From Burkholderiaceae bacterium 26 (lineage in GTDB: Bacteria > Pseudomonadota > Gammaproteobacteria > Burkholderiales > Burkholderiaceae): 64,000 nt of DNA. Shown piece after piece: positions 8,412-46,893 of the stretch. Each line of letters begins with the position of its first letter. The first letter of the stretch is position 1. The notes below the pieces were generated by a model that saw nothing but the letters and a program-made list of their open reading frames with translations, was not told where the DNA came from and did not search any database. The stretch spans positions 133,637 through 197,636 of the forward strand of contig JYOB01000010.1 of the NCBI GenBank assembly GCA_000955795.1, in the 5' to 3' direction. Made by a program: the position numbers and the translations under genes.

Positions 8412-8415
8412 CGGT

Positions 8416-9867: not shown

Positions 9868-9876
9868 GTCCTGCGC

Positions 9877-14890: not shown

Positions 14891-15016
14891 GTTTCACCGC
14901 CACGGATTGTCGAAAGGGGCGCGCAAGCGGAATTGTCGTAACATGCGGCCCGGCGGCGGGATTAAGAATATCCGCACGGGGAAACCGCCGCAGTCTGTAA
15001 AACATCAAAAGAACAC

Positions 15017-15388: not shown

Positions 15389-15428
15389 GCCGATGTGCCC
15401 GCCCCCAGCACCCAACCTCATTCAAGTC

Positions 15429-16589
15429 ATGACGCAAACCACCGCCACAGCCGAACTTCCGTTCCTGCCCTTCGTGCGCCCGACCATTGACGAGGCGACC
15501 ATCGCCGCCGTGGCCGATGTGCTGCGCTCGGGCTGGATCACCTCGGGCCCCAAGGTTGCCGCGTTCGAAGCCGCGCTGTCGGAGTACTTCGGCGGCCGCA
15601 TCGTCCGCACATTCGCCAACGGCACGGCCACGATGGAAGTCGCGCTGCGCATTGCGGGCATTGGCCCCGGCGATGAGGTAATCACCACGCCGATCTCGTG
15701 GGTCGCCACGTCCAATGTGGTGCTGACGGTCGGCGCCAAGCCGGTCTTCGTCGACATCGACCCGGTGACGCGCAACATCGATCTGGACAAAGTCGAGGCC
15801 GCCATCACGCCGCGCACCAAGGCCATTATTCCGGTCTATCTGTCGGGCCTGCCCGTCGACATGGATCGCCTCTACGACATCGCCCGCCGCCACAAGCTGC
15901 GCGTGGTGGAAGATGCCGCGCAAGCCATTGGTTCGCGTTGGGGCGACAAGCGCATCGGCCAGATTGGCGACCTGGTCAGCTTCAGCTTCCAGGCCAACAA
16001 GAACATCACGACCATCGAAGGCGGCGCGCTGGTGCTGAACACGCCCGAAGAAGCCGTGCTGGCCGAGAAATATCGCTTACAAGGCGTCGTGCGTACCGGC
16101 TTTGACGGCATGGAAGTCGACCTGGTGGGCGGCAAGTTCAACCTCACGGACGTGAATGCCGTGATCGGCCTGGGCCAATTCGCTCAGCTGGAAGCCGTGA
16201 CTGCACGCCGCGCTGCGCTGGCCCGCCGCTACTTTGCAGGCATGCGAGCAGCCGATATCGAGTCGTTCGGCGTTGAACTGCCCGTGGAGAACTTCACGCA
16301 CACCAACTGGCACATGTTCCAGATCGTGCTGCCGCTGGATCGCCTGAAGGTCGATCGCGCCAGCTTCATGGCTGGCCTGAAGGCGCTGGGCATCGGCGCT
16401 GGCGTGCACTATCCGCCCATCCACCTGTTCAAGCTCTACCGCGAACTCGGCTGGAAGCCGGGCATGTTCCCGGTGGCCGAGCGCATTGGCCGCGCCATCG
16501 TTACGCTGCCGATGTTTGCCGGCATGGAAGATTCCGATGTGGATCGCGTGGTCAGCGCGGTCCGCCAACTTTGCGCCCAGTACCAATAA
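15429..16589 (+). CDS. arnB: UDP-4-amino-4-deoxy-L-arabinose-oxoglutarate aminotransferase ArnB
   Basis: ArnB transfers an amino group from glutamate to UDP-4-keto-arabinose. The protein (386 residues from the ATG at 15429) is a DegT/DnrJ/EryC1-type PLP enzyme: FVRPTIDEATIAAV, the N-terminal GWITSGPKV, ANGTATMEVALR, VEDAAQAIGS, and the PLP lysine Lys191 in SFQANKNITTIEGG. An in-frame start 60 bases earlier would overlap the flippase gene and add unconserved residues. arnC follows after seven bases. Confidence 0.95.
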   Translation: MTQTTATAELPFLPFVRPTIDEATIAAVADVLRSGWITSGPKVAAFEAALSEYFGGRIVRTFANGTATMEVALRIAGIGPGDEVITTPISWVATSNVVLTVGAKPVFVDIDPVTRNIDLDKVEAAITPRTKAIIPVYLSGLPVDMDRLYDIARRHKLRVVEDAAQAIGSRWGDKRIGQIGDLVSFSFQANKNITTIEGGALVLNTPEEAVLAEKYRLQGVVRTGFDGMEVDLVGGKFNLTDVNAVIGLGQFAQLEAVTARRAALARRYFAGMRAADIESFGVELPVENFTHTNWHMFQIVLPLDRLKVDRASFMAGLKALGIGAGVHYPPIHLFKLYRELGWKPGMFPVAERIGRAIVTLPMFAGMEDSDVDRVVSAVRQLCAQYQ

Positions 16590-16596
16590 TCCAATA

Positions 16597-17592
16597 ATGA
16601 AGACACCCGCTCTCTCGGTCGTCATTCCTGTTTACAACGAAGAAGACGGGCTCGCCGCGCTGTTTGCGCGTCTGTATCCCGCGCTCGACGCGCTCGGCAT
16701 TTCGTATGAAGTCGTGTTCGTCAACGACGGTAGCCGCGACCGCTCCGCCGCCATGCTGGCCGAGCAGTTCCGGGCACGCCCGGACAGCACGCGCGTCGTG
16801 CTGTTCAACGGCAACTATGGCCAGCACATGGCCATCCTGGCCGGCTTTGAACATGCGCGCGGCGAACGCGTCGTCACGCTCGATGCCGACCTGCAGAATC
16901 CGCCGGAAGAAATCGGCCGCTTGGTGGAAAAGCTCGACGAAGGCTACGACTACGTCGGCACCATCCGGCGCGTGCGCCAAGACAGCTGGTTCCGTCGCAC
17001 CGCATCGCGTGCCATGAATTCGCTCCGCGAGCGCATCACGCACATCAAGATGACGGACCAGGGCTGCATGCTGCGCGCATACAACCGAACCATCGTCGAC
17101 ACCATCAACCGCTGCCGCGAAGTCAACACCTTCATTCCGGCGCTGGCCTACACGTTCAGCAAGAACCCGACCGAAATCGAAGTCGACCACGAAGAACGCT
17201 TTGCGGGTGAGTCGAAGTACTCGCTCTACAAGCTCGTGCGCCTGAATTTCGACCTGGTGACGGGCTTTTCCGTCGTGCCGCTGCAATGGTTCTCGGCGAT
17301 CGGGATGCTCTTGTCGTTTGCCTCTGCCGTGCTGTTCATCCTGCTGGTGGTGCGGCGCTTCATCCTGGGCGCGGAAGTCCAGGGCGTGTTCACGCTGTTC
17401 GCCATCACGTTCTTCCTGATGGGCGTGCTGCTGTTTGGCATTGGCCTGCTGGGCGAATACATCGGCCGCATCTATCAACAGGTGCGCGAGCGCCCGCGCT
17501 ATCTGGTGCAGGGTGTGCTGGAAGAAGCGCCGCACCTGCATGAGGCCGGCGCCGCCGATATGAAGACTGGCTCGCAGCGGGGTGTTGCATGA
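16597..17592 (+). CDS. arnC: Undecaprenyl-phosphate 4-deoxy-4-formamido-L-arabinose transferase ArnC
   Basis: A GT2 glycosyltransferase that loads formyl-L-Ara4N onto undecaprenyl phosphate at the cytoplasmic membrane face. The 331 residues show LSVVIPVYNEEDGL, FVNDGSRDRS, TLDADLQNPPEEI (catalytic DAD), MTDQGCMLRAY, and two C-terminal transmembrane helices around 228-290. The ATG at 16597 is required because the upstream extension lies within arnB. The stop overlaps the next start as ATGA. Confidence 0.96.
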   Translation: MKTPALSVVIPVYNEEDGLAALFARLYPALDALGISYEVVFVNDGSRDRSAAMLAEQFRARPDSTRVVLFNGNYGQHMAILAGFEHARGERVVTLDADLQNPPEEIGRLVEKLDEGYDYVGTIRRVRQDSWFRRTASRAMNSLRERITHIKMTDQGCMLRAYNRTIVDTINRCREVNTFIPALAYTFSKNPTEIEVDHEERFAGESKYSLYKLVRLNFDLVTGFSVVPLQWFSAIGMLLSFASAVLFILLVVRRFILGAEVQGVFTLFAITFFLMGVLLFGIGLLGEYIGRIYQQVRERPRYLVQGVLEEAPHLHEAGAADMKTGSQRGVA

Positions 17593-18530
17593 GTTCGCAG
17601 CTCAAGCGGCGTGCCGTCGTTTTCGCGTATCACAACGTCGGCGTACGCTGCCTGCGCGTGCTGGCAGCGCGTGGCATTCAGGTCGAACTCGTTGTCACGC
17701 ACGAGGACAACGTCGCCGAGAACATCTGGTTCGGTAGCGTGCGCGCCACCGCACAGGAATTAGGCATTCCATACATCACGCCGGACAACGCAAACGGCGA
17801 AGACCTGCACGCGCGAATCGCCGCAATTGCGCCGGACTTCATCTTTTCGTTCTATTATCGGCACATGATTCCGATGCGCCTGTTGAGCCTCGCCAAATTC
17901 GGTGCGTTCAACATGCACGGTTCACTGTTGCCCAAATACCGCGGCCGCGTACCCATCAACTGGGCGGTGCTGCACGGCGAGACCGAAACCGGCGCCACCC
18001 TGCACGAAATGGTCGAAAAGCCGGATGCCGGTTACATCGTCGACCAGACCATCGTGCCGATCCTGCCGGACGACACCTCGCACGAAGTGTTCGAAAAGGC
18101 CACCGTGGCGGCCGAGCAAACCTTGTGGCGCGCGCTTCCCGCGATGATTGCCGGGCACATTCCGCAGCACCCGAACGTGCTGGCCAACGGTAGCTATTTC
18201 GGCGGCCGCAAACCCGAAGACGGCCGCATCGACTGGTCGAAACCGGCACAGCAGGTCTATAACCTGATTCGTGCCGTGGCGCCGCCCTACCCCGGTGCCT
18301 TTACGGACGCCGGCAGCGAACGCTACGTTGTCGCGCGGGCCCGTCTGGCGCACCAAACCTTTACGAATTTGCCGCCGGGCTTGCACGTCGTGGATAATGC
18401 GATGTTCGGCGTGTGCGGCGATGGGGGAGCCATCGCCATTCACGAGCTCTGGCGCGTCGAGCCCCAAGCTGCCAGCGGAACATCTGTCGTGACCGCGCAG
18501 CAGCTCGCCAGCCAGCTCGCCCTCTCCTGA
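17589..18530 (+). CDS. arnA: UDP-L-Ara4N formyltransferase (ArnA N-terminal half as a separate gene)
   Basis: The 313-residue protein matches the formyltransferase half of E. coli ArnA. Catalytic residues Asn108, His110 and Asp146 sit in AFNMHGSLLPKYRGR and EKPDAGYI, as in methionyl-tRNA formyltransferase folds. It N-formylates UDP-L-Ara4N using 10-formyl-tetrahydrofolate. In enterobacteria it is fused to the decarboxylase; here it ends by its own stop, 16 bases before the decarboxylase gene. It overlaps arnC by four bases. Confidence 0.93.
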   Translation: MSSQLKRRAVVFAYHNVGVRCLRVLAARGIQVELVVTHEDNVAENIWFGSVRATAQELGIPYITPDNANGEDLHARIAAIAPDFIFSFYYRHMIPMRLLSLAKFGAFNMHGSLLPKYRGRVPINWAVLHGETETGATLHEMVEKPDAGYIVDQTIVPILPDDTSHEVFEKATVAAEQTLWRALPAMIAGHIPQHPNVLANGSYFGGRKPEDGRIDWSKPAQQVYNLIRAVAPPYPGAFTDAGSERYVVARARLAHQTFTNLPPGLHVVDNAMFGVCGDGGAIAIHELWRVEPQAASGTSVVTAQQLASQLALS

Positions 18531-18546
18531 TCTTGAGTTTGCCTTC

Positions 18547-19611
18547 ATGAAAAAAGTACTGATCCTCGGCGTCAACGGCTTCATCGGCCACCACCTGTCC
18601 AAGCGCATCCTGGAGACCACCGACTGGGAGGTCTACGGCATGGACATGCAGACCGAGCGTCTGGGCGACTTGGTCAACCACCCGCGCATGCACTTCTTCG
18701 AGGGTGACATCACCATCAACAAGGAGTGGGTCGAGTATCACGTGAAGAAGTGCGACGTGATCCTACCGCTGGTGGCCATCGCCACGCCGTCGACCTACGT
18801 CAAAGACCCGCTGCGCGTGTTCGAGCTGGACTTTGAAGCCAACTTGCCGATCGTTCGCTCGGCTGCCAAGTACGGCAAGCACCTGGTCTTCCCGTCGACC
18901 TCCGAGGTCTACGGCATGTGCGGCGATTCGGAATTCGATCCGGAAGCCTCGCCGCTGATCTACGGCCCCATCAACAAGCCGCGCTGGATCTACGCGTGCT
19001 CGAAGCAGTTGATGGACCGCGTGATCTGGGGTTACGGCATGGAAGGCCTGAACTTCACGCTGTTCCGTCCGTTCAACTGGATCGGCCCGGGCCTCGACTC
19101 GATCTACACCCCGAAGGAAGGTTCGTCGCGCGTTGTGACGCAGTTCCTCGGCCACATCGTGCGCGGCGAGAACATCAAGCTCGTCGACGGCGGCAGCCAG
19201 AAGCGCGCCTTCACGTATATTGATGACGGCATCGACGCGCTGGTGCGCATCATTGCCAACAAGGACGGCGTGGCCTCGGGCAAGATCTACAACATCGGCA
19301 ACCCGTCGAACAACTACTCGGTGCGCGAGCTGGCCAACATGATGTTGGAACAAGCCGCCAAGATCGACGAGTACAAGGACACCGCCAAGCAGGTCCAACT
19401 GGTGGAAACGACCTCCGGCGCCTACTACGGCACCGGCTACCAGGACGTGCAGAACCGCGTGCCGAAGATCGCCAACACCATGGAAGACCTTGGCTGGAAG
19501 CCGACCACCGTGATGAAGGACGCGCTGGCGAACATTTTCGAAGCGTATCGCACGCACGTGGCTGAAGCCCGCAGCCTGGTCGAAGACGGCAACGGCAACG
19601 GCAACAAGTAA
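18547..19611 (+). CDS. arnA: UDP-glucuronate oxidative decarboxylase (ArnA C-terminal half as a separate gene)
   Basis: This 354-residue short-chain dehydrogenase matches the C-terminal half of ArnA, which oxidises and decarboxylates UDP-glucuronate to UDP-4-keto-pentose with NAD+. The NAD motif GVNGFIG starts at residue 8, followed by PSTSEVYGMC and the Tyr-x-x-x-Lys pair in YACSKQ. FRPFNWIGPGLD is an ArnA-type block. It lies between the formyltransferase gene and arnD. It does first what ArnB, the formyltransferase and ArnC then continue. Confidence 0.95.
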   Translation: MKKVLILGVNGFIGHHLSKRILETTDWEVYGMDMQTERLGDLVNHPRMHFFEGDITINKEWVEYHVKKCDVILPLVAIATPSTYVKDPLRVFELDFEANLPIVRSAAKYGKHLVFPSTSEVYGMCGDSEFDPEASPLIYGPINKPRWIYACSKQLMDRVIWGYGMEGLNFTLFRPFNWIGPGLDSIYTPKEGSSRVVTQFLGHIVRGENIKLVDGGSQKRAFTYIDDGIDALVRIIANKDGVASGKIYNIGNPSNNYSVRELANMMLEQAAKIDEYKDTAKQVQLVETTSGAYYGTGYQDVQNRVPKIANTMEDLGWKPTTVMKDALANIFEAYRTHVAEARSLVEDGNGNGNK

Positions 19612-19634
19612 AAGCAACACCCCCGCGCAGGTTC

Positions 19635-20528
19635 ATGGCTCTCATCGTCCTCAAGATCGACGTCGACACCCTGCGCGGTACCCGCGAAGGCGTGCCCAAC
19701 CTCGCGCGCATGCTGCGCGAGCACGAGGCGGGCGCGACCTTCCTCTTCAGCCTCGGCCCGGATCACACCGGCTGGGCGCTGCGTCGGGCCTTTCGCCCCG
19801 GCTTTCTCAAAAAGGTTTCTCGCACGTCGGTTGTTGAGCATTACGGTCTTCGCACGCTGATGTACGGCGTGCTGCTGCCCGGCCCCGACATCGGACGCAA
19901 AGCCGCAGCTGAAATGCGCGCCATCGCCGAGGCAGGTTTCGAGACCGGCATCCACACGTGGGACCACGTGCTCTGGCAAGACAATGTCCGCCAGCGCGAC
20001 GCAGGCTGGACCGCCCGCCAGATGACCGCCGCACACGCCCGTTTCATCCAGGTATTCGGCCAGCCACCCGTGACGCACGGCGCCGCCGGCTGGCAGATGA
20101 ACGACCACGCGTTCCGCCAGATCGACAACTGGGGCATGGCCTATGCCTCCGACGGCCGGGGCACGCATCCGTACATCCCGAGCGTTGATGGCAAAGCGCT
20201 GAACCACGTGCAATTGCCGACGACGCTGCCCACACTGGACGAGCTGATCGGCGTGGAAGACATCACGCTCGACAACGTCGCCCGGCATATCCTGAAGATG
20301 ACCGAGTCCGACCGCGACCAGGTGTTTACCTTGCATGCAGAACTTGAAGGGCAGAAACTTGCCCCGATCTTCCGCGAGTTGCTGCGAGGCTGGCGCGCGC
20401 AAGGCCATCGGCTAGGGTCGATGGGCGATTACTACGCGACGCTCGATCGCAGTACCCTGCCCGTGCAGCCCGTCACATGGGGCGAAGTTGCCGGCCGCAG
20501 CGGCAGCCTGATCGTTCAGCCGGCCTGA
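19635..20528 (+). CDS. arnD: 4-deoxy-4-formamido-L-arabinose-phosphoundecaprenol deformylase ArnD
   Basis: A 297-residue NodB-type polysaccharide deacetylase. Asp9 and Asp11 in LKIDVDTLRGT and the histidines of GIHTWDHVLWQ are the expected metal and catalytic residues. It removes the formyl group after transfer to undecaprenyl phosphate, making that step irreversible. It starts 23 bases after the decarboxylase gene and closes the arn block. Confidence 0.94.
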   Translation: MALIVLKIDVDTLRGTREGVPNLARMLREHEAGATFLFSLGPDHTGWALRRAFRPGFLKKVSRTSVVEHYGLRTLMYGVLLPGPDIGRKAAAEMRAIAEAGFETGIHTWDHVLWQDNVRQRDAGWTARQMTAAHARFIQVFGQPPVTHGAAGWQMNDHAFRQIDNWGMAYASDGRGTHPYIPSVDGKALNHVQLPTTLPTLDELIGVEDITLDNVARHILKMTESDRDQVFTLHAELEGQKLAPIFRELLRGWRAQGHRLGSMGDYYATLDRSTLPVQPVTWGEVAGRSGSLIVQPA

Positions 20529-37089: not shown

Positions 37090-38199
37090 CTAGTCCGACA
37101 GCCCCAGCAGCGGATGCTGCTCATGGCGCCACGGCGAGATAAAGAACGCAGCCACTTCATCGTCACGCACGGCGTCGATGCTGGTGTGCCTCCACTTGGG
37201 CGCGTGGTCTTTGTCGACAGCGAGTGCGCGAATGCCTTCGATACCGTCGCCTTCAGCAAACACGTGCGTCATCATGTCCAGTTCGCGGCGCAGTTCATCG
37301 GCCAGCGTGGTGCGGCGGCCGCGGCGGATCAGCTCCAGCGTCACCGCCATCATCAACGGCGAGCGCTTGGCCATGTGCTCAGCGGTCTGTGCGGCCCATT
37401 CGGAATCCGTGCTGCCAGCCAGGTCGGCGAAGATGCCTTGCACGCTGCTCTGGCTGAAGCAGGCATCGATGGCCTCGCGGTGGGGCACGATGATGGCCTT
37501 GGCATCATTCGGCGCCGATGCGGCTTCGGTAAAGCAGGCAGCGATCTGCTCGGCGCTGCCCCAGTTGCCATCGCGCAGGCGTTGGACGATGCCCGCCAGC
37601 GCCTCGGTGGTGACGTGGCAATCGGCAAGGCCGACCGACAACGCGTCGGCCGCTTCGATCATCTGCCCTGTCACGCCCAGGTATTCGCCCACATGGCCGG
37701 GCACGCGCGCCAGGAACCAGCCGCCGCCAACGTCCGGGAACAGGCCGATGTTGGTTTCAGGCATGGCCATCTTCGTGCGCTCGGTCACCACGCGCAGGGA
37801 TGCGCCTTGCGAGATGCCCATGCCACCGCCCATCACCACGCCGTCCATCAACGCGATGTAGGGCTTGGCATAGCTGAAGATCAGGTGGTTGAGACGGTAT
37901 TCCTCGGTGAAAAAGGTGATGAGTTGCGGGTCGCCGGCCGTGGCGGCGCGGTGGAAGAAACGGATGTCACCGCCGGCACACAGGGCCTTGCCGCCCTCGC
38001 CACGCAGGATGACAGCGTGGACCTCCGGATCGTGCTGCCAGGCCAGCAGCGCATGCGACATCGCGCGGATCATCTCCAGCGACAGCGCGTTGAGCGCCTG
38101 CGGCCGGTTCAGCGTCAGCCAGCCGATGCCGCCGCGTACTTCGGCGATCACGTTGGGTTGGACTTCAGCCTGAGGCGCGATGGAAACGGTGGATTGCAT
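37090..38199 (-). CDS. Enoyl-CoA hydratase/isomerase family, 3-hydroxyisobutyryl-CoA hydrolase-like
   Basis: A 369-residue crotonase-fold protein. Its length and blocks (GEGGKALCAGGDIRFF, DGVVMGGGMGISQGAS, MAMPETNIGLFPDVGGGWFLARV) match the 3-hydroxyisobutyryl-CoA hydrolase group, which acts in valine breakdown, rather than 260-residue enoyl-CoA hydratases. GGG supplies the oxyanion hole, and Glu in PETNIGL is the usual catalytic residue. The ATG at 38199 (MQSTVSIAPQ) is preferred to one 14 codons earlier. No other valine-degradation gene is nearby. Confidence 0.88.
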   Translation of the reverse strand: MQSTVSIAPQAEVQPNVIAEVRGGIGWLTLNRPQALNALSLEMIRAMSHALLAWQHDPEVHAVILRGEGGKALCAGGDIRFFHRAATAGDPQLITFFTEEYRLNHLIFSYAKPYIALMDGVVMGGGMGISQGASLRVVTERTKMAMPETNIGLFPDVGGGWFLARVPGHVGEYLGVTGQMIEAADALSVGLADCHVTTEALAGIVQRLRDGNWGSAEQIAACFTEAASAPNDAKAIIVPHREAIDACFSQSSVQGIFADLAGSTDSEWAAQTAEHMAKRSPLMMAVTLELIRRGRRTTLADELRRELDMMTHVFAEGDGIEGIRALAVDKDHAPKWRHTSIDAVRDDEVAAFFISPWRHEQHPLLGLSD

Positions 38200-38345: not shown

Positions 38346-39251
38346 ATGACCCCTGCCAACGCCACCCCGGGCGCATCCGGTTTCGACCCAGGCCTGATCC
38401 TGCTGGCCTTTGCGCCGGTCTTCCTGCTGACCATCGGCGCAGAGGCGTGGTACTGGGGCAAGCGTGATCCATCCGTCTACAGCCTCAAAGACACCGTTTC
38501 AAACGCGTGCCTTGCGCTCATGCACCAGGCGTCGGACGCGTTCTTCCTGTGGCTGATGATCAAGACGGTCTACTCGTGGACGTACAGCCACGGCTTGCGC
38601 GCGGTGCCCGAGACGTGGTGGTCATTCGTGTTGCTCTTGCTGCTGCAGGATTTTCTGTACTACTTCTTCCACCGCGCGAGCCATCGCGTGCGCTGGATGT
38701 GGGCCTCGCATGTAACGCACCACTCGTCGGAAGGCATGAACTTTTCGACGGCGTTCCGCCAGAGCCTGACCTATCCGATTTCTGGTATGTGGCTGTTCTG
38801 GATTCCGCTTGCCTGGATCGGCTTTACGCCGGACTGGGTGATCCTCGCCGTGGGCCTGAACCTGGCATTCCAGTTCTTCGTGCATACGCGGCTGGGTGCG
38901 CTGGATTCGCGCTACGCCGGCTTCTGGCGCTGGCTCGGGCAATACGTGAATACGCCGTCGGTGCATCGCGTTCACCACGCCAAGAACCCGCAGTACATCG
39001 ACCGAAACTACGCCGGCGTGCTGACCATCTGGGATCGCATGTTCGGCAGCTTCGTGCCAGAGGAGGACGCGCCCGTTTTCGGCATCACGCGGCAAGTCCA
39101 CACGCACAACCCGATCACCCTCACCTTCCACGAATGGCGCGACATGTGGGCAGACGTGTTCCGCGATCGGGACATTCGCTACCTGTGGAAACCGCCCGAG
39201 TGGCGCAGCCCGCGCGCTGCGGGAACGGTCGAGGCGATGCCGCTCACATGA
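38346..39251 (+). CDS. Sterol desaturase/fatty acid hydroxylase family membrane protein
   Basis: A 301-residue integral membrane di-iron oxygenase. The conserved histidine motifs are FHRASH, HVTHH and the C-terminal HRVHH, all expected to bind iron. Hydrophobic helices occur at about 12-32, 55-75 and 130-170. Bacterial members hydroxylate various lipids; the substrate here is unknown. Its last eight bases overlap the end of the convergent LysR gene. Confidence 0.88.
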   Translation: MTPANATPGASGFDPGLILLAFAPVFLLTIGAEAWYWGKRDPSVYSLKDTVSNACLALMHQASDAFFLWLMIKTVYSWTYSHGLRAVPETWWSFVLLLLLQDFLYYFFHRASHRVRWMWASHVTHHSSEGMNFSTAFRQSLTYPISGMWLFWIPLAWIGFTPDWVILAVGLNLAFQFFVHTRLGALDSRYAGFWRWLGQYVNTPSVHRVHHAKNPQYIDRNYAGVLTIWDRMFGSFVPEEDAPVFGITRQVHTHNPITLTFHEWRDMWADVFRDRDIRYLWKPPEWRSPRAAGTVEAMPLT

Positions 39252-40113
39252 ACGGCGGCCCGAAGCGCGTGGCGACGCGATCAGTGGAATCGAACAGATC
39301 CCGCAGGACGGCGCTGGTGCACGTCGGCTGCACGTACAGGTAAAACGCCACTTCCGGCAGTCGCGGCAGGCCATCTGCTTCGGTCAGCACACGCATGTTG
39401 GCGTCGAGCAATTCGGTCGTGCGCGCCGTCACGCCCAGCCCCGCGCTAATCGCAGCCTTGATGCCCGTCAGCGTGGGCGACAGATAACTCGTGCGCCATG
39501 GAATGTGGTGCGCATCCAGGCATTCGATCGACAGCTGACGGAACAGGCTCAGTTCGTCGGCCATGACCAACGGCACCGGCGCGGCGGGGTTGAAGATGAA
39601 ATCTTCCGCGCAGATCCACACCATCGGCGACGTGCGCAGCTTGATACCGGGAAAAGCATCGTCATAGCGGGTGGAGATCGCCAGATCGAGCGTCTTGTCG
39701 CGCAACGCGTCCATCAGGAACGGGCTGCGACCAACGTTGATTTCCATCTGCAATTCTGGCGACAGCTTGGACAACCGCCGCAGCAGATTCGGCAAGATCG
39801 AATCGGCCACGTCATGCGGTGAGCCGATGCGGATTTTCTCGATCGGGCCGCCCGTCTGGATCACCTGCACGGCCTGGTCGTTGAGCGCCAGGATCTTGTG
39901 CGCATAGGCGACAAGCCGCACGCCATCGGGCGTCATCATCTTGTGGCGGCCGCGCTTCTCGAACAGCGCGCAGCCCATTTCCTCCTCCAGCCGCTGCATC
40001 TGCTGCGTGACCGCAGACTGCGTGCGCCCCACCCGTGCCGCTGCCGCGGCAAACGTCTCGTGCTGCGCAATCGCTACGAATGTGCGCAGCAAATCGATGT
40101 CCAGATTTCGCAT
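39244..40113 (-). CDS. LysR-type transcriptional regulator
   Basis: A 289-residue LTTR. Winged helix at 1-65: LLRTFVAIAQHETFAAAAARVGRTQSAVTQQMQRLEEEMG. The C-terminal effector-binding domain follows. It is transcribed away from the ABC transporter operon across a 186-base region that contains a good LysR site (40162-40178), so it almost certainly controls that operon and itself. The inducer may be a sulfur amino acid, by context only. Confidence 0.93.
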   Translation of the reverse strand: MRNLDIDLLRTFVAIAQHETFAAAAARVGRTQSAVTQQMQRLEEEMGCALFEKRGRHKMMTPDGVRLVAYAHKILALNDQAVQVIQTGGPIEKIRIGSPHDVADSILPNLLRRLSKLSPELQMEINVGRSPFLMDALRDKTLDLAISTRYDDAFPGIKLRTSPMVWICAEDFIFNPAAPVPLVMADELSLFRQLSIECLDAHHIPWRTSYLSPTLTGIKAAISAGLGVTARTTELLDANMRVLTEADGLPRLPEVAFYLYVQPTCTSAVLRDLFDSTDRVATRFGPPFM

Positions 40114-40161: not shown

Positions 40162-40178
40162 AATTGTTCTGCGCAATT
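40162..40178. promoter_or_regulatory. Likely LysR operator in the divergent intergenic region
   Basis: AATTG-N7-CAATT is a perfect inverted repeat containing the LysR T-N11-A core. It lies 48 bases before the LysR start and 121 bases before the transporter start. GGCC pairs flank it on both sides. Confidence 0.6.
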
Positions 40179-40299
40179 CTGGCCGATAACCTGCCGGAAA
40201 TACAAATAACACTGAACGAACAATACGTTCAGGCAGACACCTGAGCCGCGGGGAAGCGCGGTCCGACACTGAATCGGTTTCATACAAAGGAGGAACACC

Positions 40300-41136
40300 A
40301 TGTGGGCATGGAAATGGGCACAAGCTGCCGCCGCGCTAACCTTGGGCACGCTGGGCGTGGCAGGTGTGGCGCACGCCGATGCGCTGACGGACATCAAATC
40401 GCGCGGCACGCTGGTCTGCGGCACCCAGAACGCCAGCGAGCCTTACGCCTTTCCCGACGCCGCCACGCGGCAGATCGTCGGCTTTGACGTGGATGTGTGC
40501 AGCGCGTTGGCCAAGGGGCTGGGCGTCAAGCTGGAGCACCGCGCGCTGTCAACCGACGCACGCATTCCCGAACTGAAGACACATCGCGTGGATGTGCTGG
40601 CCGCTGCCGTGGCGTGGATGCCGGCGCGCGCCGCGCAAGTCGATTTCAGCAACCAATATTTCGTTGCGCCGATCCGCGTGCTGGTGCGCGCTGATTCGCC
40701 CATCCAGACGCTCGATCAGCTTGCCAACAAGAAGATCGCCGCATCCGAAGGTTCAAGCTCGGCAGCGGTGTCAGTCACGCGCCTGCCGGATTCGCGCTTG
40801 CTGACATTCCACGATATTTCGTCGGCGTATCTCGCTTTGCAGCAAGGCAAGGTCGATGGGCTGGTGGCGGGGCAGCTCGTGCTGGCGCGCTTTGCCAACG
40901 AGGCGGCGCAGAAAGGCGGCCAGCAATATCGCCTGCTGACGGCGCCCGTTTATGAAGAACGCTGGGGCGTGGTGATGAACAAGAACGAGCCCGCGCTCAT
41001 GGCAGCCGTCAACAAGGTGCTGGCGGATTACGACCAGTCCAGCGGCCTGCAGACGAGCTTCGACAAGTGGCTCGGCGCCAAGTCGGGCTACAAGTTCTCG
41101 CGCGACTACAAGGTCGAACCGATCAAGCCGCAGTAA
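40300..41136 (+). CDS. Polar amino acid ABC transporter, periplasmic binding protein
   Basis: A 278-residue family 3 solute-binding protein. The signal peptide ends at about VAHADA. The mature N-terminus IKSRGTLVCGTQNASEPYAFPD and VGFDVDVCSALAKGLG are typical. The ligand-binding aspartate/arginine region is less obvious: DVLAAAVAWMPARAAQVDFSNQYF. AGGAGG precedes the ATG. It is first in an operon with two permeases, an ATPase and sulfur-enzyme genes, suggesting cysteine, cystine or a related compound as ligand. Confidence 0.9.
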   Translation: MWAWKWAQAAAALTLGTLGVAGVAHADALTDIKSRGTLVCGTQNASEPYAFPDAATRQIVGFDVDVCSALAKGLGVKLEHRALSTDARIPELKTHRVDVLAAAVAWMPARAAQVDFSNQYFVAPIRVLVRADSPIQTLDQLANKKIAASEGSSSAAVSVTRLPDSRLLTFHDISSAYLALQQGKVDGLVAGQLVLARFANEAAQKGGQQYRLLTAPVYEERWGVVMNKNEPALMAAVNKVLADYDQSSGLQTSFDKWLGAKSGYKFSRDYKVEPIKPQ

Positions 41137-41152
41137 GCCCAGGGCGGCCGAC

Positions 41153-41845
41153 ATGTTCGATCTCTCGTTCCTGCTCGAAGACGGCTATCTGCGCCTGTTG
41201 CGGGACGGCATCCTGACCACGCTGCGTCTGTTTGTCGTCTCGGGCCTGCTGGCCATCGCCGTTGGTGTTTCACTGGCAACGCTGCGTGCGCTTCCGGTGC
41301 GCGTGTTCAAGGCGTTCGTCATCGTGGTTGTCGAATACCACCGCAACGTGCCGATGCTGGTGCAGATCCTGGTGTGGTATTTCGGCGTCCCGCAGTTGCT
41401 GCCGGAATCGCTCAAGGTATGGATCAACGCCGGCAACACCGAGTTCCTCTTCGCGGCGATTGCCCTGGCGCTGAACTCGGGTGCGTTCATCTCCGAAGAC
41501 CTGCGCTCGGGCCTGCGTGCGATCCCGCATACGCAGCAGGAGGCGGCGTGGTCGATCGGGCTGACGCATCTGCAGGCGCTGCGTTACGTGATCCTGCCGC
41601 AGGGGATTCGTGTGGCGCTGCCCGCGCTGCTCAACCAGGCGCTGTTGCTGTTCAAGAACAGCTCGCTGGCGATGGCCATCGGCGTGCACGAATTGCTCTA
41701 CCGCACGCGGCAGATCGACAACCTCACCTTCCGCACGTTTGACGTGTTCCTCGTCGCCACGCTGCTGTATCTGCTCGGCACGCTTGCGCTGATGTCGCTG
41801 TCGGATCGCGTTGCCAAGCGTCGTACGACGCCACTGGGGGTCTGA
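41153..41845 (+). CDS. Amino acid ABC transporter permease (first)
   Basis: A 230-residue inner-membrane permease of the HisM/GlnP type with about five helices and the EAA loop EAAWSIGLTHLQALRYVILPQGIRVALP. Typical N-terminal DGILTTLRLFVVSG. It starts 16 bases after the binding-protein gene and pairs with the next gene as a heterodimer. Confidence 0.94.
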   Translation: MFDLSFLLEDGYLRLLRDGILTTLRLFVVSGLLAIAVGVSLATLRALPVRVFKAFVIVVVEYHRNVPMLVQILVWYFGVPQLLPESLKVWINAGNTEFLFAAIALALNSGAFISEDLRSGLRAIPHTQQEAAWSIGLTHLQALRYVILPQGIRVALPALLNQALLLFKNSSLAMAIGVHELLYRTRQIDNLTFRTFDVFLVATLLYLLGTLALMSLSDRVAKRRTTPLGV

Positions 41846-41848
41846 CGC

Positions 41849-42541
41849 ATGCTTGAAATCCTGCATGACTATCTGGCGTTGTTCCTGGTCGGGTCGTGGC
41901 CGAATGGCCCTCTGGGCGGCGTCGCGGTGACGCTGGTGCTTTCGGTGCTGGGCTTGGTGATGTCGTTCCCGATTGCAGTGCTGATCGGTCTGGCACACGT
42001 GAGCCCTTGGCGCTGGCTGCGTCGTATTGCCGGTGTTTGGTCTCGCCTGGTGCGCGGCATTCCGCTGCTGATGATCATCTTCTGGGCCTACTTTGCGGTG
42101 CCGCTCCTGGTGGGCAAGGAAGTGTCGGCGTTCACCACGGCGGTCTGCGCGATCATCGTCTACGAAAGCGCATTCCTCTCGCAGATCGTACGTGCGGGGC
42201 TCGAGGGACTGCCGCGCGGGCAGATGGAAGCAGCGCGCTCGAACGGCTTGTCCTGGCTACAGAGCATGCGCTACGTGCAACTGCCGCAAGCGCTGACCAA
42301 CATGCTGCCGTCGATCGTTAACCAGTTCGTGTCGATCATCAAGGCAACGTCGCTCGCCTATGTGATTGGCGTGCCGGAGCTGACGTACTCAGCGGCGCAG
42401 GTCAACACCATCACGCTGACCAAGCCACTGGAAACCTTCCTCGTGCTGGCAGCCTTCTACTTCGTTTTGTGCTTCGCCATCTCCCGCTTCGCGGGGCAGC
42501 TGGAGCGCCGCATTGCCCGCCATCGCGCGGGGCTTGCCTAG
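41849..42541 (+). CDS. Amino acid ABC transporter permease (second)
   Basis: A 230-residue permease with the EAA loop [29 protein letters not shown] and five hydrophobic helices. [15 protein letters not shown] matches the family's conserved RGTPLL region. It starts three bases after the first permease gene, as usual for the pair. Confidence 0.94.
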
Positions 42542-42570
42542 GAACAAACCCTTGCCGGAGACAACATCCC

Positions 42571-43326
42571 ATGCTGGCATTTGAAAACGTCGACAAGTAC
42601 TACGACGACTACCACGCGCTCAAAGGCATCAGCGCCACCATCGAACGCGGTGAAGTCGTTGTGGTGTGCGGCCCCTCGGGCTCGGGCAAATCCACACTGA
42701 TCCGCACGGTCACGCGGCTGGAGGGCATCCACGGCGGATGCATCCGCTTTGAAGGGCGCGATGTCCATGCACGCGATGTACGCGTCAACCAGTTGCGTGC
42801 GCGCATCGGCTTCGTGTTCCAGAACTTCAACCTGTTTCAGAACCTGTCGGTGCGGCAGAACCTGATTCTCGGGCCGACCAAGGTGCTCGGTCTATCGCGC
42901 GATGAAGCGACGGCGCAGGCCGAAGCGCTGCTTGCCAAGGTCGGCCTTGCCCACAAGATCGACGCGATGCCCGCGAACCTCTCGGGTGGCCAGCAGCAGC
43001 GCGTGGCCATTGCGCGGGCGCTGGCGATGAAGCCGCCGCTCATGCTGTTTGATGAGCCGACCAGCGCGCTCGACCCCGAGATGGTGCAAGAGGTTCTGCA
43101 CGTGATGCGCGAGCTGGCAGACGACGGTCTCACGATGATGATCGTCACCCACGAGATGGGCTTCGCGCGTGATGTGTCCAGCCGTGTCTGGTTCATGGAC
43201 CAGGGCGAGTTGCTGGAGGACTCGCCGCCCGACCAGTTCTTCAGCCGACCGAAGCACGCGCGTGCGCAGCGCTTTCTGCAAGACGTCCTGCGGCCTGCGC
43301 CGCGCATTGCCGAACTCGTCGCCTGA
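42571..43326 (+). CDS. Amino acid ABC transporter ATP-binding protein
   Basis: A 251-residue ATPase with Walker [10 protein letters not shown], signature LSGGQQQR, Walker [15 protein letters not shown] and the switch His in VTHEMGFA. It powers the two permeases. The ATG at 42571 ([11 protein letters not shown]) is the conserved start; an earlier frame overlaps the permease gene. Confidence 0.96.
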
Positions 43327-43392
43327 CACCAACAACGATAACAACGCCACGTAACACAACAAGGCGCCCCCATACCTCAGGAGAATCCATCC

Positions 43393-43986
43393 ATGTCCAC
43401 ATCTCTTCCTCAGCAACGCCAAGCGGCAGTCAATGATGCGATTGCCGCCATGAAAGCCGCACTCGCACCCGAAGGTGAAACGCGTCCCGCACTGGCGGAC
43501 GTGCTCGAACAGGTCAAAGGCCTCGCCGCGCGCACGGAGTTCTGGCAGGAAACCGACTTCCCGCCTCCCAGCGACGGCGAGCTGCAAGCCCGCTACCTGA
43601 TCCACGAAGATGCAAACCAGACCTACGCGCTGTACCTGAATGTCATGCGCCCGGGCAAGAAGATCACGCCGCACAACCACACCACGTGGGCCTGCATCGC
43701 CGCCGTGGACGGCACGGAATACAACTATGTCTACCGCCGCACCGACGACCGCGCCACGCCCGGCGTCGGGACGCTGGAAATGACCGACACCGTCGTCGTC
43801 GAACCCGGTACCGGCATCGCGCTGGCGGCCGAAGACATCCACGCCGTCGAGATCAAGGGCGAGGCGCCGATCCGCCATCTGCACATGTACGGACGCGCGC
43901 TCGAAACGCTGACCGAGCGCATCACGTTCGACCTGGCGACCGGCCGCTACCAGACCATGGGCATCGGCGTGAAAACGCGCCGCTAA
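43393..43986 (+). CDS. Cysteine dioxygenase-like thiol dioxygenase (cupin)
   Basis: A 197-residue cupin of the cysteine dioxygenase family, which oxidises cysteine thiol to the sulfinate with iron and O2. By eye, the iron ligands are His94, His96 (PHNHTTW) and His150 (EDIHAVE). Arg67 falls where mammalian CDO has the carboxylate-binding Arg60. Cys101 and Tyr166 fall where mammalian CDO has the Cys93-Tyr157 crosslink; most bacterial CDOs have Gly at the Cys position. It lies 66 bases after the ABC ATPase and is followed by the rhodanese gene. The exact thiol substrate is uncertain. Confidence 0.82.
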
Positions 43987-44077
43987 CCAGCCAGCCTCAA
44001 CCCGAATCGCGTTGCCTGTCATCCGCGCTGCGTGCGCGGAGGGACGCGCTCACCCTTTTGATTCGTTTCGCATCGAT

Positions 44078-45667
44078 ATGACATCGTTCGTTACCGCCCA
44101 GACCCTGAAAGCGTGGCTGCACGACGGCGCCGAGATCGCGCTGTTCGACGTGCGCGAGCACGGCCAGTATGGTGAAGCCCACCTCTTCTACGCCATCCCG
44201 CTGCCGTACAGCCGTCTTGAGATCGATGCCCCGCGCCTCGCGCCACGCCGCGCCGTGCGCGTGGTCGTTTATGACGACAACGATGGCGTTGCCGACCGCG
44301 CGGCCGAACGCCTGAGCGCCATCGGCTACACCAACGTGCACGTGCTGCAAGGCGGCGCGCAAGGCTGGACGCACGCGGGCTTCACACTGTTTGCCGGCGT
44401 CAACGTGCCATCCAAAACCTTCGGTGAACTCGTCGAGATGGCTTACCACACGCCACGCGTCACCGCACGCGAGCTCGCGGCCATGCGCGAACGCGGCGAC
44501 GACGTCGTCATCGTCGACGGCAGACCCGTCAGCGAATACCTGAAGATGACGATCCCGTCGTCGATCTGCTGCCCGAACGGCGAACTTGGGCTGCGCATCC
44601 GCGAGCTTGTCCCCGATGCAACCACGCCTATCGTCGTCAACTGCGCGGGCCGCACACGCAGCATCATCGGCGCGCAGACGCTGATCAACCTGGGCATCCC
44701 CAACCCGGTGATGGCGCTGGAGAACGGAACGCAAGGCTGGTACCTCGAAGACCTTCCGCTGGAGCACGGCAGCACGCGCCGTTATCCCGACGTCGTGACG
44801 CCCGCTACCGTCAAGGACATGCGCGAGGCCAGTCAGCAACTCGCCGCCCGCTTTGCAGTGCCCGAGGTCGATGCAGAATCGCTCGAACGTTGGGTTGCAC
44901 ACGACGAACACAGCGTCTTCCTGTGCGATGTCCGTACCCCCGAGGAATTCGCCAGCGGCAGCCTGCCGGGTGCACAGCATGCGCCGGGCGGGCAGTTGAT
45001 CCAGGCAACCGATCAGTACGTCGGCGTGCGTCATGCCCGCCTCGTGCTCTTCGATGCCGACGGCGTGCGCGCGCCAATCGTTGCGAGCTGGCTGCGGCAA
45101 CTCGGCCACGATGCCTATGTGCTGCGCGAGGGATTGAACAGCAACGCGAGCCTGCCGGCGGCCCCAACCGCGTTGCCGCAACCGTTGCCGGAAATCAGTG
45201 CGCAAGCGCTCTCCACCGCGCTCGCGGCCGGCACCGCACACGTGATCGACTTGCGCCCCAGCATGAGCTTCCGCCGCGCCCACGTGCCTGGCGCCACATG
45301 GGCCATTCGTCCGCGCTTGCCGGCCCTGGCCGCCGACCGCGATACCGTGCTGATCGCTGACGACCCGCGCATCGCGGCACTCGCGGCGGCAGATTTGGGC
45401 ACGGGCGCGCCGCATGCCGCATCGCGTCTAAAGTTGCTCGCCGGAAGCGTCGCCGCGTGGACTGCCGCCGGCTACGTCACCGAAGGTTCCGAGAACGTCC
45501 CGCCCGACGCCGATTGCATCGACTATCTCTTCTTCGTGCATGATCGGCATGACGGAAACAAGGCTGCAGCGCGGCAATACCTGGCCTGGGAAACCGGCCT
45601 GCTCGCCCAGCTCGATGCGCAGGAACTTGGCGCCTTTCGCGTGGGCGCTGGTGCCGCGCAGTCATGA
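44078..45667 (+). CDS. Four-domain rhodanese-like sulfurtransferase
   Basis: A 529-residue cytoplasmic protein with four rhodanese homology domains at about 1-105, 125-235, 262-355 and 372-468. Only the second has a catalytic cysteine, Cys189 in the loop CAGRTRS. The matching loops read YDDNDGVAD, FDADGVRAP and ADDPRIAAL, so the other domains cannot carry a persulfide there. A 60-residue tail follows. It probably moves sulfane sulfur or senses it. It lies 91 bases after the dioxygenase gene and overlaps the next start by four bases. Confidence 0.87.
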   Translation: MTSFVTAQTLKAWLHDGAEIALFDVREHGQYGEAHLFYAIPLPYSRLEIDAPRLAPRRAVRVVVYDDNDGVADRAAERLSAIGYTNVHVLQGGAQGWTHAGFTLFAGVNVPSKTFGELVEMAYHTPRVTARELAAMRERGDDVVIVDGRPVSEYLKMTIPSSICCPNGELGLRIRELVPDATTPIVVNCAGRTRSIIGAQTLINLGIPNPVMALENGTQGWYLEDLPLEHGSTRRYPDVVTPATVKDMREASQQLAARFAVPEVDAESLERWVAHDEHSVFLCDVRTPEEFASGSLPGAQHAPGGQLIQATDQYVGVRHARLVLFDADGVRAPIVASWLRQLGHDAYVLREGLNSNASLPAAPTALPQPLPEISAQALSTALAAGTAHVIDLRPSMSFRRAHVPGATWAIRPRLPALAADRDTVLIADDPRIAALAAADLGTGAPHAASRLKLLAGSVAAWTAAGYVTEGSENVPPDADCIDYLFFVHDRHDGNKAAARQYLAWETGLLAQLDAQELGAFRVGAGAAQS

Positions 45668-46893
45668 CGCTCAACCTTCGAGGCCAACGCACCATGTCAT
45701 CGCAGAAAACCGAGCCACGGCTGGCAACCCGAGTCGCAACGCGCCTCGTCAAGGGTGGCACATCGCCCGCCTTTGAAGGCGGCCGAGCCGTCAACCCGCC
45801 CGTCGTGCGCGCCTCCACCGTGCTGTTCGATTCGATGGACGAGATGAACGACGCGCGGCGCCGTCGCGGCACCGAACGCATGTTCACCTACGGCGCGCGC
45901 GGCAACCCGACGGGCTTTGCGCTGGAAGACGTTGTCGCGCAACTCGAAGGCGGCTATCGCACGCGGCTCTTCCCGACTGGCCTGGCCGCCATTTCGATGG
46001 TTTTCCTGGCCTTCGCCCGCCCAGGGGATCACGTCTTGATTGCCGATTGCGTCTACCAGCCGCTGCGTCATTTCGTCGATACGTTCCTGCGCCCCTGGGG
46101 CGTGGAGGTGACGTATTTCTGCGCCGACGGCAGCGATGTCGCACAGCAGCTCAAACCGACGACCAAGCTCGTCTACGTGGAATGCCCCGGCTCGCTCGTC
46201 TATGAGATGTGCGATCTGCCCGCGCTGGCTGAGATTGCGCATCGCCATGGGGCCCTGGTCATCGCCGACAACACGTGGGGCTCGGGTCTGCAATACCGCC
46301 CGCTCACACTGGGTGCCGACGTATCGATCATGGCGGCAACCAAGTATCTGAGCGGCCACTCCGACGTGATGATGGGCACGGTGACCACCACACAGGCGTG
46401 CTGGCAAACGCTCGCCACGATGAGCGACGCCCAAGGCGTGGCTGTCAGCCCCGACGATGCCTACCTCGTGCTGCGCGGCACGCGCACGCTGGCCGCGCGC
46501 CTTGCCATGCACGAACGCAACGCGCTTGAGATTGCGCGCTGGCTTGTGGCGCGTCCGGAAGTGGCACGTGTCTTTTGCCCCGCGCTGCCGGAAGACCCCG
46601 GACACGCGCTGTGGCAACGCGACTGCAGCGGCACCAACGGACTGGTCTCGTTCGAATTCGCCCAAGCAGATGCGCAAATCGCCGGGCGCTTCGTCGATGC
46701 CCTCATGCTGTTTGGCATCGGCGCCTCATGGGGCGGCTTCGAGAGCCTTGCGACGGTCAGCAATGTGGCGGGCACGCGCACCTGCACGGATTGGTCCCGA
46801 GCGGGTCCGATCGTGCGCCTGCATATCGGACTGGAAGACCCGCAAGACCTGATCGACGATCTGGCACAAGCCTTCGTGCGCATCCAGACGTAA
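45664..46893 (+). CDS. metC: Cystathionine beta-lyase-like PLP enzyme
   Basis: A 409-residue Cys/Met-metabolism PLP enzyme. Lys227 in MAATKYLSGHSDVMMG is the PLP lysine; FTYGARGNPT, FPTGLAAISMVFLAF, YVECPGSLVYEMCDL and ADNTWGSG are typical of MetC rather than MetB. MetC-type lyases cut C-S bonds in cystathionine, cystine and other S-conjugates, releasing pyruvate and ammonia. ATG at 45664 overlaps the rhodanese stop; ATG at 45694 (MSSQKTE) is an alternative. The context suggests breakdown of an imported sulfur compound rather than methionine synthesis. Confidence 0.9.
   Translation: MTLNLRGQRTMSSQKTEPRLATRVATRLVKGGTSPAFEGGRAVNPPVVRASTVLFDSMDEMNDARRRRGTERMFTYGARGNPTGFALEDVVAQLEGGYRTRLFPTGLAAISMVFLAFARPGDHVLIADCVYQPLRHFVDTFLRPWGVEVTYFCADGSDVAQQLKPTTKLVYVECPGSLVYEMCDLPALAEIAHRHGALVIADNTWGSGLQYRPLTLGADVSIMAATKYLSGHSDVMMGTVTTTQACWQTLATMSDAQGVAVSPDDAYLVLRGTRTLAARLAMHERNALEIARWLVARPEVARVFCPALPEDPGHALWQRDCSGTNGLVSFEFAQADAQIAGRFVDALMLFGIGASWGGFESLATVSNVAGTRTCTDWSRAGPIVRLHIGLEDPQDLIDDLAQAFVRIQT

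What the first reader, a model, noticed from the sequence alone, without database searches (positions are those of the whole stretch)
40162..46893. LysR-controlled importer plus thiol dioxygenase, multi-rhodanese and C-S lyase operon
Seven same-strand genes with gaps of 91 bases or less join an amino-acid ABC importer to three enzymes that act on sulfur: a CDO-like dioxygenase, a rhodanese and a MetC-type lyase. This reads as a catabolic unit for a cysteine-like or S-conjugated compound. The lyase would release a thiol or persulfide, the rhodanese would handle sulfane sulfur, and the dioxygenase would oxidise a thiol to a sulfinate. The substrate and pathway order are my inference.
Basis: partly seen in the sequence, partly recalled or inferred. 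Interest (0 to 1): 0.7.

Follow-up and report, generated by a model that had tools for sequence, protein, structure and literature searches.

The report
Mercaptosuccinate breakdown operon with dedicated lyase
This bacterial gene cluster is of a kind known to break down the sulfur compound mercaptosuccinate, and its extra lyase and importer hint that in nature the mercaptosuccinate is cut out of a fumarate-damaged form of the amino acid cysteine.

Summary
The seven same-strand genes exist as described, with a divergent LysR. The "CDO-like" enzyme is a mercaptosuccinate dioxygenase (Msdo): 65% identical to solved Msdo 8VNI, weakly similar to 3MDO/CDO. The gene set matches the Msdo cluster of Advenella mimigardefordensis, where LysR and Msdo are needed for growth on mercaptosuccinate but deleting the importer changes nothing. 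So the cluster is known; the passages read leave lyase and importer unexplained. New here: Msdo and its lyase share the same 18 of 120 family genomes. These lyases form a clade with its own Ala-Arg motif. Rhodanese is fused to dioxygenase in 7 loci and to lyase in one. Best guess: the lyase cuts S-(2-succino)cysteine into mercaptosuccinate, pyruvate and ammonia; Msdo then yields succinate plus sulfite, which the rhodanese handles. Against: 38 of 38 linked binding proteins lack the aspartate that usually holds an amino group, and some Msdo loci lack the lyase. No library paper holds both '2-succino' and 'mercaptosuccin'. Substrate untested.

The parts
39244..40113 (-). LysR-type regulator, divergent from the operon
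   Evidence: Pfam LysR_substrate and HTH_1; divergent LysR upstream in 79 of 80 Msdo loci, the exception starting at a contig end; its Advenella counterpart is needed for growth on mercaptosuccinate (PMC5373536)
40127..40192 (.). putative LysR operator/promoter: TTCAG...CTAAT box, then ATTAAATTGTT, then GATAAC
   Evidence: blocks conserved over 12 aligned intergenic regions; ATTGTT in 27 of 35 PAAT-type (window included) and 24 of 45 other loci against 3% in shuffles; rows are related, so not independent; the stricter pattern is in 0 of 50 LysR-Msdo regions; the sigma-70 scan found no promoter
40300..41136 (+). periplasmic binding protein, SBP family 3 (PAAT importer)
   Evidence: Pfam SBP_bac_3; Arg110 conserved, Gly191 at the usual Asp position in 38 of 38
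41153..41845 (+). ABC importer permease 1
   Evidence: Pfam BPD_transp_1
41849..42541 (+). ABC importer permease 2
   Evidence: Pfam BPD_transp_1
42571..43326 (+). ABC importer ATPase
   Evidence: Pfam ABC_tran
43393..43986 (+). mercaptosuccinate dioxygenase (Msdo)
   Evidence: 8VNI E 8e-79, 127 of 194 residues identical; His94, His96, His150 invariant in 10 aligned sequences (metal-ligand role inferred); in the Msdo clade, SH-aLRT 100
44078..45667 (+). four-domain rhodanese, one invariant Cys (Cys188 of the 528-residue translation from 44081, motif CAGRTR)
   Evidence: four Pfam Rhodanese stretches; 1YT8 E 5e-112; Cys188 in 153 of 153 distinct sequences
45664..46893 (+). PLP-dependent C-S lyase of the cystathionine beta-lyase family, Msdo-linked clade (inner ATG at 45694)
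   Evidence: Pfam Cys_Met_Meta_PP; TIGR01324 408 bits against a cut-off of 366; clade and YGARG motif

Best explanation
This is an Msdo-type catabolic operon beside a divergent LysR. Proposed working: a cysteine S-conjugate carrying a succinyl group, best guess S-(2-succino)cysteine (2SC, the fumarate adduct of cysteine), is taken up or formed in the cell. The Msdo-linked PLP lyase beta-eliminates it to mercaptosuccinate, pyruvate and ammonia. Msdo adds O2 to give sulfinosuccinate, which falls apart into succinate and sulfite. The four-domain rhodanese deals with the sulfite, probably by joining it to sulfane sulfur as thiosulfate. Shown elsewhere for the Advenella cluster: Msdo activity and the need for Msdo and LysR. 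Shown here: gene identities, co-occurrence, clade-specific lyase, natural fusions. Inferred: lyase substrate and product, importer ligand, the rhodanese reaction.
For: Msdo identity. Same gene set in Advenella, with no growth on mercaptosuccinate in the lysR and msdo deletions and an Msdo Km of 0.2 mM (PMC5373536). The importer deletion grows like wild type on mercaptosuccinate although its binding protein rises up to 22.7-fold on it, so its natural cargo may be something else. Msdo (over 300 bits) and a lyase at least 64% identical occur in the same 18 of 120 family genomes, in five mixed genera too. All 30 dioxygenase-linked lyases of the tree form one clade (SH-aLRT 99) apart from the 17 other lyases sampled; the window's genome has two more CBL-type lyases, 45% and 40% identical. 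Ala68-Arg69 (YGARG) in 75 of 75 Msdo-linked rows (74 loci, L138 being on the same contig as L044 by its length) and in 6 of 6 later ones, against Arg68 with His or Asp in 7 of 7 sister-linked rows and no Ala68 in 25 of 25 other CBL rows. Importers differ (PAAT 34, TctC 39, none found 7 of 80; a branched-chain type in Aminobacter), but the lyase stays in 74 of 80. Fusions: dioxygenase-rhodanese in 7 loci, rhodanese-lyase in one.
Against: 38 of 38 Msdo-linked binding proteins have Gly where two amino-acid-type reference proteins have Asp, so the importer may not carry an alpha-amino acid; 6 of 13 binding proteins of sister clusters lack it too. L129 pairs a YGARG lyase with a dioxygenase outside the Msdo clade, so motif and dioxygenase are not perfectly coupled. 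Msdo with rhodanese but no lyase nearby: L038, L063, L081, L214, and the Marinobacter plasmid lists no C-S lyase. L169 (Aminobacter) has a lyase with YGRYG beside an Msdo-like enzyme placed near the Msdo clade on a long branch. PMC5373536 offers another role for the rhodanese in Variovorax B4 (cofactor synthesis for a molybdopterin sulfite oxidoreductase). No binding, activity or growth data on 2SC exist here; most counted genomes are related Burkholderiales.
Confidence: 0.5

Rival explanations
1. Sulfane-sulfur supply. The nutrient is mercaptosuccinate itself. The lyase acts on cystine or a similar disulfide to make persulfide sulfur, and the rhodanese joins that sulfur to the sulfite from Msdo, making thiosulfate.
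For: The rhodanese is fused to the dioxygenase in 7 loci and to the lyase in one, as if it were the hub between sulfite and sulfane sulfur. The only PF00174 protein found in the genome lies at C40:61357 and looks MsrP-like by eye, so sulfite oxidation by that family is not evident. L129 holds another lyase type in a gene order like that of L128.
Against: It does not explain why lyases linked to different dioxygenase clades differ at one motif, or why lyase and Msdo share the same 18 of 120 genomes. Several dioxygenase-rhodanese pairs have no lyase nearby (L220, L221, L222, L223, L226).
Confidence: 0.2
2. Plain mercaptosuccinate (or its disulfide) import and oxidation. The importer carries the dicarboxylate thiol and the lyase is a hitch-hiking or auxiliary gene.
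For: Binding proteins lack the amino-group Asp. Other loci have TctC receptors instead. Advenella and Variovorax B4 grow on mercaptosuccinate. A few Msdo loci have no lyase.
Against: Deleting the importer in Advenella leaves growth on mercaptosuccinate unchanged. The lyase is kept in 74 of 80 loci across importer types and falls in a clade of its own.
Confidence: 0.2
3. One reading: uptake and catabolism of cystine, lanthionine, djenkolate or cystathionine, with a cysteine or 3-mercaptopropionate dioxygenase.
For: Importer and lyase families include those of cystine uptake and MetC.
Against: Dioxygenase is Msdo-like (267 bits to 8VNI against 31.6 bits to the chains named 3MDO); binding protein, permease and ATPase score below the cystine-specific NCBIfam cut-offs (105 of 312, 111 of 300, 275 of 406 bits).
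Confidence: 0.07

Closest known systems
Msdo gene cluster of Advenella mimigardefordensis DPN7T (MIM_c37410-37480; PMC5373536, passages and section 25 read)
   Same: LysR beside Msdo, cystathionine beta-lyase, rhodanese, PAAT ABC importer
   Different: Gene order: by locus tags Advenella has LysR, Msdo, lyase, rhodanese, then importer; the window has LysR, importer, Msdo, rhodanese, lyase
Msdo region of Variovorax paradoxus (strain B4 as cited in PMC5373536; strain 110B in L042)
   Same: Msdo with rhodanese and cystathionine beta-lyase
   Different: In L042 a single TctC receptor gene stands between rhodanese and lyase instead of the ABC importer
S-(2-succino)cysteine pathways: yxe/scm of Bacillus subtilis and the 2SL lyase of Enterococcus italicus and Dickeya dadantii (PMC9706529: abstract and one passage; PMC12757645: passages)
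   Same: An ABC importer in the cluster and an enzyme that breaks the succino-cysteine link, as proposed here
   Different: Those routes N-acetylate first and recover cysteine; this operon has no acetyltransferase or deacetylase, and would give mercaptosuccinate and pyruvate
Pseudomonas aeruginosa four-domain rhodanese 1YT8 beside 3MDO (organism and gene pairing PA2602-PA2603 are recalled)
   Same: Same rhodanese architecture; in the window's own genome a distant thiol dioxygenase gene is followed directly by such a rhodanese (L139)
   Different: The dioxygenase there is of another clade; no lyase match in L139
Persulfide dioxygenase-rhodanese fusions (passages in PMC6060420)
   Same: Sulfite-forming dioxygenase fused to rhodanese
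   Different: Metallo-beta-lactamase superfamily there, cupin-type thiol dioxygenase here; the window has separate genes

Membership tests
Mercaptosuccinate dioxygenase (Msdo) | Close similarity to a protein deposited as Msdo and placement in its clade | tested here: met
   8VNI E 8e-79, 127 of 194 residues identical; Msdo-linked clade SH-aLRT 100
Mercaptosuccinate dioxygenase (Msdo) | Three-His iron site | tested here: met
   His94, His96, His150 invariant in 10 of 10 aligned sequences; that these are the metal ligands is inferred by position
Mercaptosuccinate dioxygenase (Msdo) | Oxidises mercaptosuccinate | not testable with these tools
   needs an enzyme assay
Cysteine dioxygenase or 3-mercaptopropionate dioxygenase | Full-length similarity to solved CDO or 3MDO | tested here: not met
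   29-33 bits to four chains named 3MDO or cysteine dioxygenase type I and 14 bits to two further CDO chains, against 267 to 8VNI; no Pfam CDO_I match
Msdo catabolic cluster | LysR, Msdo, CBL-type lyase, rhodanese, importer together | tested here: met
Msdo catabolic cluster | LysR and Msdo required for growth on mercaptosuccinate | not testable with these tools
   shown for Advenella
Cystathionine beta-lyase (TIGR01324) | Score above the curated cut-off | tested here: met
   408.3 bits, cut-off 365.9
Cystathionine beta-lyase (TIGR01324) | E. coli MetC motif YGRRG (Arg58 and Arg59; their roles are recalled) | tested here: not met
   YGARG in the window; Ala68-Arg69 in 75 of 75 Msdo-linked rows
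Known 2SC pathways (yxe/scm, 2SL) | N-acetyltransferase, YxeK or 2SL, and deacetylase in the cluster | tested here: not met
   none among the seven genes and LysR typed; the rest of the genome was not searched for them
PAAT amino-acid importer | SBP_bac_3 binding protein, two permeases, ATPase | tested here: met
PAAT amino-acid importer | Asp for the ligand's alpha-amino group (rule recalled) | tested here: not met
   Gly191 in 38 of 38

The most novel reading that the evidence does not exclude
A third natural way to break down S-(2-succino)cysteine, without N-acetylation: a dedicated PLP lyase clade cuts it to mercaptosuccinate, pyruvate and ammonia, and Msdo and a rhodanese finish the job to succinate and sulfite or thiosulfate. 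Mercaptosuccinate would then be an internal intermediate, and the same lyase-dioxygenase-rhodanese module, with changed dioxygenase and lyase clades, would serve other cysteine S-conjugates in sister clusters.
Probability: 0.4. Interest if true: 0.7.

Novelty: new member of a known kind. Interest (0 to 1): 0.45.

Why it matters
In the one cluster paper I could read, mercaptosuccinate is studied as a polythioester precursor (PMC5373536, abstract); where a cell would meet it in nature is, as far as I know, open. If the lyase makes it from S-(2-succino)cysteine, a biomarker of raised fumarate in diabetes, obesity and certain cancers (PMC9706529, abstract), the operon gives a natural source for mercaptosuccinate, explains why importer and lyase are kept though the importer is not needed for growth on mercaptosuccinate, and adds an enzyme that removes succinated cysteine without acetylation. 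One purified lyase and one growth test would settle it.

Tried and rejected
Rejected: a CDO or 3MDO identity for the dioxygenase; S-(2-carboxyethyl)cysteine giving 3-mercaptopropionate, my first idea, dropped once 8VNI came up; the lyase as the housekeeping MetC (two other CBL-type lyases in the genome, 45% and 40%; no Ala68 in 25 of 25 other CBL rows).

Led nowhere or weak: no link between this importer and known 2SC importers was made. The shared LysR operator is suggestive only: the stricter AATTAAAT-type pattern was in 0 of 50 LysR-Msdo intergenic regions, a looser ATTGTT box is shared. The promoter scan found nothing, and terminator counts are not above shuffles (6 against 5.2). A search for papers on MetC active-site residues gave none of use, so residue roles there are recalled. 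Brandt 2014 on Variovorax Msdo is not held. In one search the gene caller found no genes in L214; tblastn found Msdo-like and rhodanese matches there and no lyase. Six loci of L003-L082 without a lyase match were left out. L138 lies on a contig of the same length as that of L044 and seems to be the same record, so the 75 rows are 74 loci. The trees are quick trees (SH-aLRT only) of 47 and 52 chosen rows, with several long branches (L169, L129, L219 and others); L139 had no match in that search and is not in the dioxygenase tree. My gene caller for loci is a simple codon-usage script, so start points are rough.
Full report
What is there. The window holds seven + strand genes from 40300 to 46893 (binding protein, two permeases, ATPase, dioxygenase, four-domain rhodanese, PLP lyase) with gaps of at most 91 bases, and a divergent LysR gene at 39244-40113. 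The genome is most likely a Ralstonia: the nearest named dioxygenases are 98% identical and from Ralstonia sp. NFACC01 and Ralstonia pickettii SSH4.

What the dioxygenase is. It matches the solved mercaptosuccinate dioxygenase 8VNI with E 8e-79 and 127 of 194 residues identical, while the next four chains, named 3MDO or cysteine dioxygenase type I, score 29-33 bits. His94, His96 and His150 are invariant in ten aligned sequences. In a tree of 52 dioxygenases it lies in a clade with 24 other Msdo-linked rows and one long-branched Aminobacter row (SH-aLRT 100).

The cluster is known. PMC5373536 (passages and section 25 read) describes in Advenella mimigardefordensis a LysR gene, Msdo, a cystathionine beta-lyase, a rhodanese and a PAAT ABC importer side by side. 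It notes the same partners (rhodanese, cystathionine beta-lyase) beside Msdo in Variovorax paradoxus B4. The strains without lysR or msdo did not grow on mercaptosuccinate. Msdo had a Km of 0.2 mM. The binding protein rose up to 22.7-fold on mercaptosuccinate, yet deleting the importer left growth as in the wild type. In the passages read, the paper gives no role to the lyase and leaves the importer's cargo open; for B4 it reports the idea that sulfite is oxidised by a molybdopterin oxidoreductase and that the rhodanese may serve cofactor synthesis. The Fig 5 legend names the deletion 37430-37480, which would include the lyase and rhodanese genes; the strain table and the text name 37450-37480. 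If the legend were right, lyase and rhodanese would also be dispensable on mercaptosuccinate, which fits the view that the lyase acts before mercaptosuccinate but would not speak for an essential rhodanese.

The lyase belongs to the system. Of the 80 nearest Msdo loci (180 were found, the best 80 kept), 80 have the rhodanese, 79 the divergent LysR (the exception begins at a contig end) and 74 the lyase. Of the six without a lyase, three are cut by contig ends and three are real (L038 Cupriavidus gilardii, L063 Thauera, L081 a Cupriavidus MAG). The importer varies: PAAT in 34, a TctC receptor in 39, none found in 7, two of those cut (TctC by Pfam for four of them). An Aminobacter plasmid has lyase, dioxygenase and rhodanese with a branched-chain-type importer. 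In 120 genomes of the family (the same set in both calls, as far as the listed handles show), Msdo over 300 bits is in 18 and a lyase at least 64% identical is in 18, and they are the same 18. The Fisher p of 9e-22 ignores kinship, but five genera are mixed and still agree. A sister dioxygenase group (8 genomes) and lyases of 49-51% identity (7 genomes) agree likewise except in G402, which has no such lyase. Of 13 genomes with a lyase of 46-48% identity, 12 have no dioxygenase match; the 13th, G505, has Msdo with its own 80% lyase. In the order-wide sample of 399 genomes, 8 have an Msdo-like match over 230 bits; the lyase lies beside it in 7 of these 8, the exception being G663 (L214).

The lyase clade is distinct. 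In a tree of 47 lyases, all 30 linked to a dioxygenase form one clade (SH-aLRT 99) apart from the 17 others. At the loop after Tyr66, Msdo-linked lyases have Ala68-Arg69 (YGARG in the rows printed) in 75 of 75 rows, or 74 loci, and in 6 of 6 later ones (L209-L213, L228). Sister-linked ones have Arg68 with His (6) or Asp (1) in 7 of 7, and YGRHG in L171, L172 and L218. Other CBLs mostly have Leu-His, and E. coli MetC reads YGRRG. I recall that this loop reaches into the neighbouring subunit's active site in this family; Arg69 could therefore bind a succinyl carboxylate or take over the PLP phosphate. Exceptions: L129 has YGARG with a dioxygenase outside the Msdo clade, and L169 has YGRYG beside an enzyme near it.

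Fusions. Seven loci have a dioxygenase and the four-domain rhodanese in one reading frame of 711-745 codons (L130, L131, L132, L137, L216, L217, L218; places of the dioxygenase part, frames). They form one clade (SH-aLRT 98), so perhaps one event. One genome, in the window's class, has rhodanese and lyase in one 919-residue protein (L129). The rhodanese is thus tied to both neighbours. Only one of its four domains has an invariant cysteine (Cys188, CAGRTR, 153 of 153). The same kind of rhodanese follows a distant, 3MDO-like dioxygenase gene elsewhere in the window's genome (L139), and several dioxygenase-rhodanese pairs have no lyase nearby (L220, L221, L222, L223, L226), so its job is probably general to thiol dioxygenases that lead to sulfite. 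The only PF00174 protein found in the genome lies at C40:61357 and looks MsrP-like by eye, so a sulfite oxidase of that family is not evident; other sulfite-oxidising enzymes were not searched.

How it probably works. A lyase of this family frees a thiol from a cysteine S-conjugate. If the thiol is the substrate of the dioxygenase next to it, the thiol is mercaptosuccinate and the conjugate is S-(2-succino)cysteine or a close relative. This would explain why the lyase is kept, why lyase and dioxygenase clades mostly change together, and why the importer is not needed on mercaptosuccinate. It is inference; no activity was tested.

What speaks against it. The binding proteins of 38 Msdo-linked loci (window included) keep Arg110 but have glycine at 191, where the two reference binding proteins have aspartate (role recalled); of 13 binding proteins from sister clusters, 7 have the aspartate and 6 do not. 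Either the importer carries something without a free amino group, or it holds the amino group otherwise. Some Msdo loci have no lyase (L038, L063, L081, L214; no C-S lyase listed on the Marinobacter plasmid). The rhodanese-lyase fusion also fits a rival in which the lyase provides sulfane sulfur to trap sulfite. Nearly all evidence comes from related Burkholderiales.

Regulation. LysR-operon intergenic regions share a box pair: ATTGTT occurs in 27 of 35 PAAT-type loci and 24 of 45 others, against 3% in shuffles. The stricter pattern from the PAAT loci was in 0 of 50 LysR-Msdo regions.

Literature. No paper in the held library contains both '2-succino' and 'mercaptosuccin'. Five papers name mercaptosuccinate dioxygenase. 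Two 2SC papers (PMC9706529: abstract and one passage; PMC12757645: passages) put N-acetylation first in the known routes; the 2SL enzymes have minor activity on 2SC itself. Subscription papers, among them Brandt 2014, could not be read.

Verdict. Ordinary in identity (a further Msdo cluster), with an open and easily tested question about its natural substrate.

Noticed in passing
L139 (G000:C44:231000-247000), 7859-10083: A second thiol dioxygenase of the window's genome (26% to Msdo) directly followed by another four-domain rhodanese (45% to the window's); resembles the 3MDO-rhodanese pair of Pseudomonas aeruginosa (pairing recalled).
   Followed up: partly
L130 5540-7741; L131 8127-10364; L132 7628-9838; L137 6172-8340; L216 3565-5724; L217 7593-9728; L218 6112-8319: Single-frame fusions of a thiol dioxygenase with a four-domain rhodanese, one clade in the dioxygenase tree; a TctC receptor lies near some of them (L131, L132, L216).
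   Followed up: partly
L129 8100-10859: One 919-residue protein made of a four-domain rhodanese and a YGARG-type C-S lyase, next to a PAAT importer and a diverged dioxygenase.
   Followed up: partly
L125, L128, L129: Sister clusters with binding proteins, a FAD-linked oxidase and a class I aminotransferase (Pfam in L125, by eye in the others), in L125 also a malate/L-lactate dehydrogenase, and a PAAT importer beside dioxygenase and lyase; substrate unknown.
   Followed up: partly
L133 and L134 (same genus as the window): A sister dioxygenase-lyase-PAAT cluster; genome G492 carries both it and the Msdo cluster, G415 only the sister.
   Followed up: partly
L171 8980-16532 (Variovorax paradoxus VAI-C plasmid): Dioxygenase and lyase followed by hydantoinase/oxoprolinase genes, which may point to gamma-glutamyl or glutathione conjugates upstream of the lyase.
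   Followed up: no
L170 8001-8629 (Marinobacter sp. M3C plasmid): An Msdo-like gene matched in two pieces and annotated only in part, next to a rhodanese and, upstream, a TRAP transporter; no C-S lyase listed.
   Followed up: no
window 13220-20528, + strand: Four of these genes are typed as aminoarabinose transferase, DegT-type aminotransferase, family 2 glycosyltransferase and epimerase: looks like an arn-type lipid A modification cluster.
   Followed up: no
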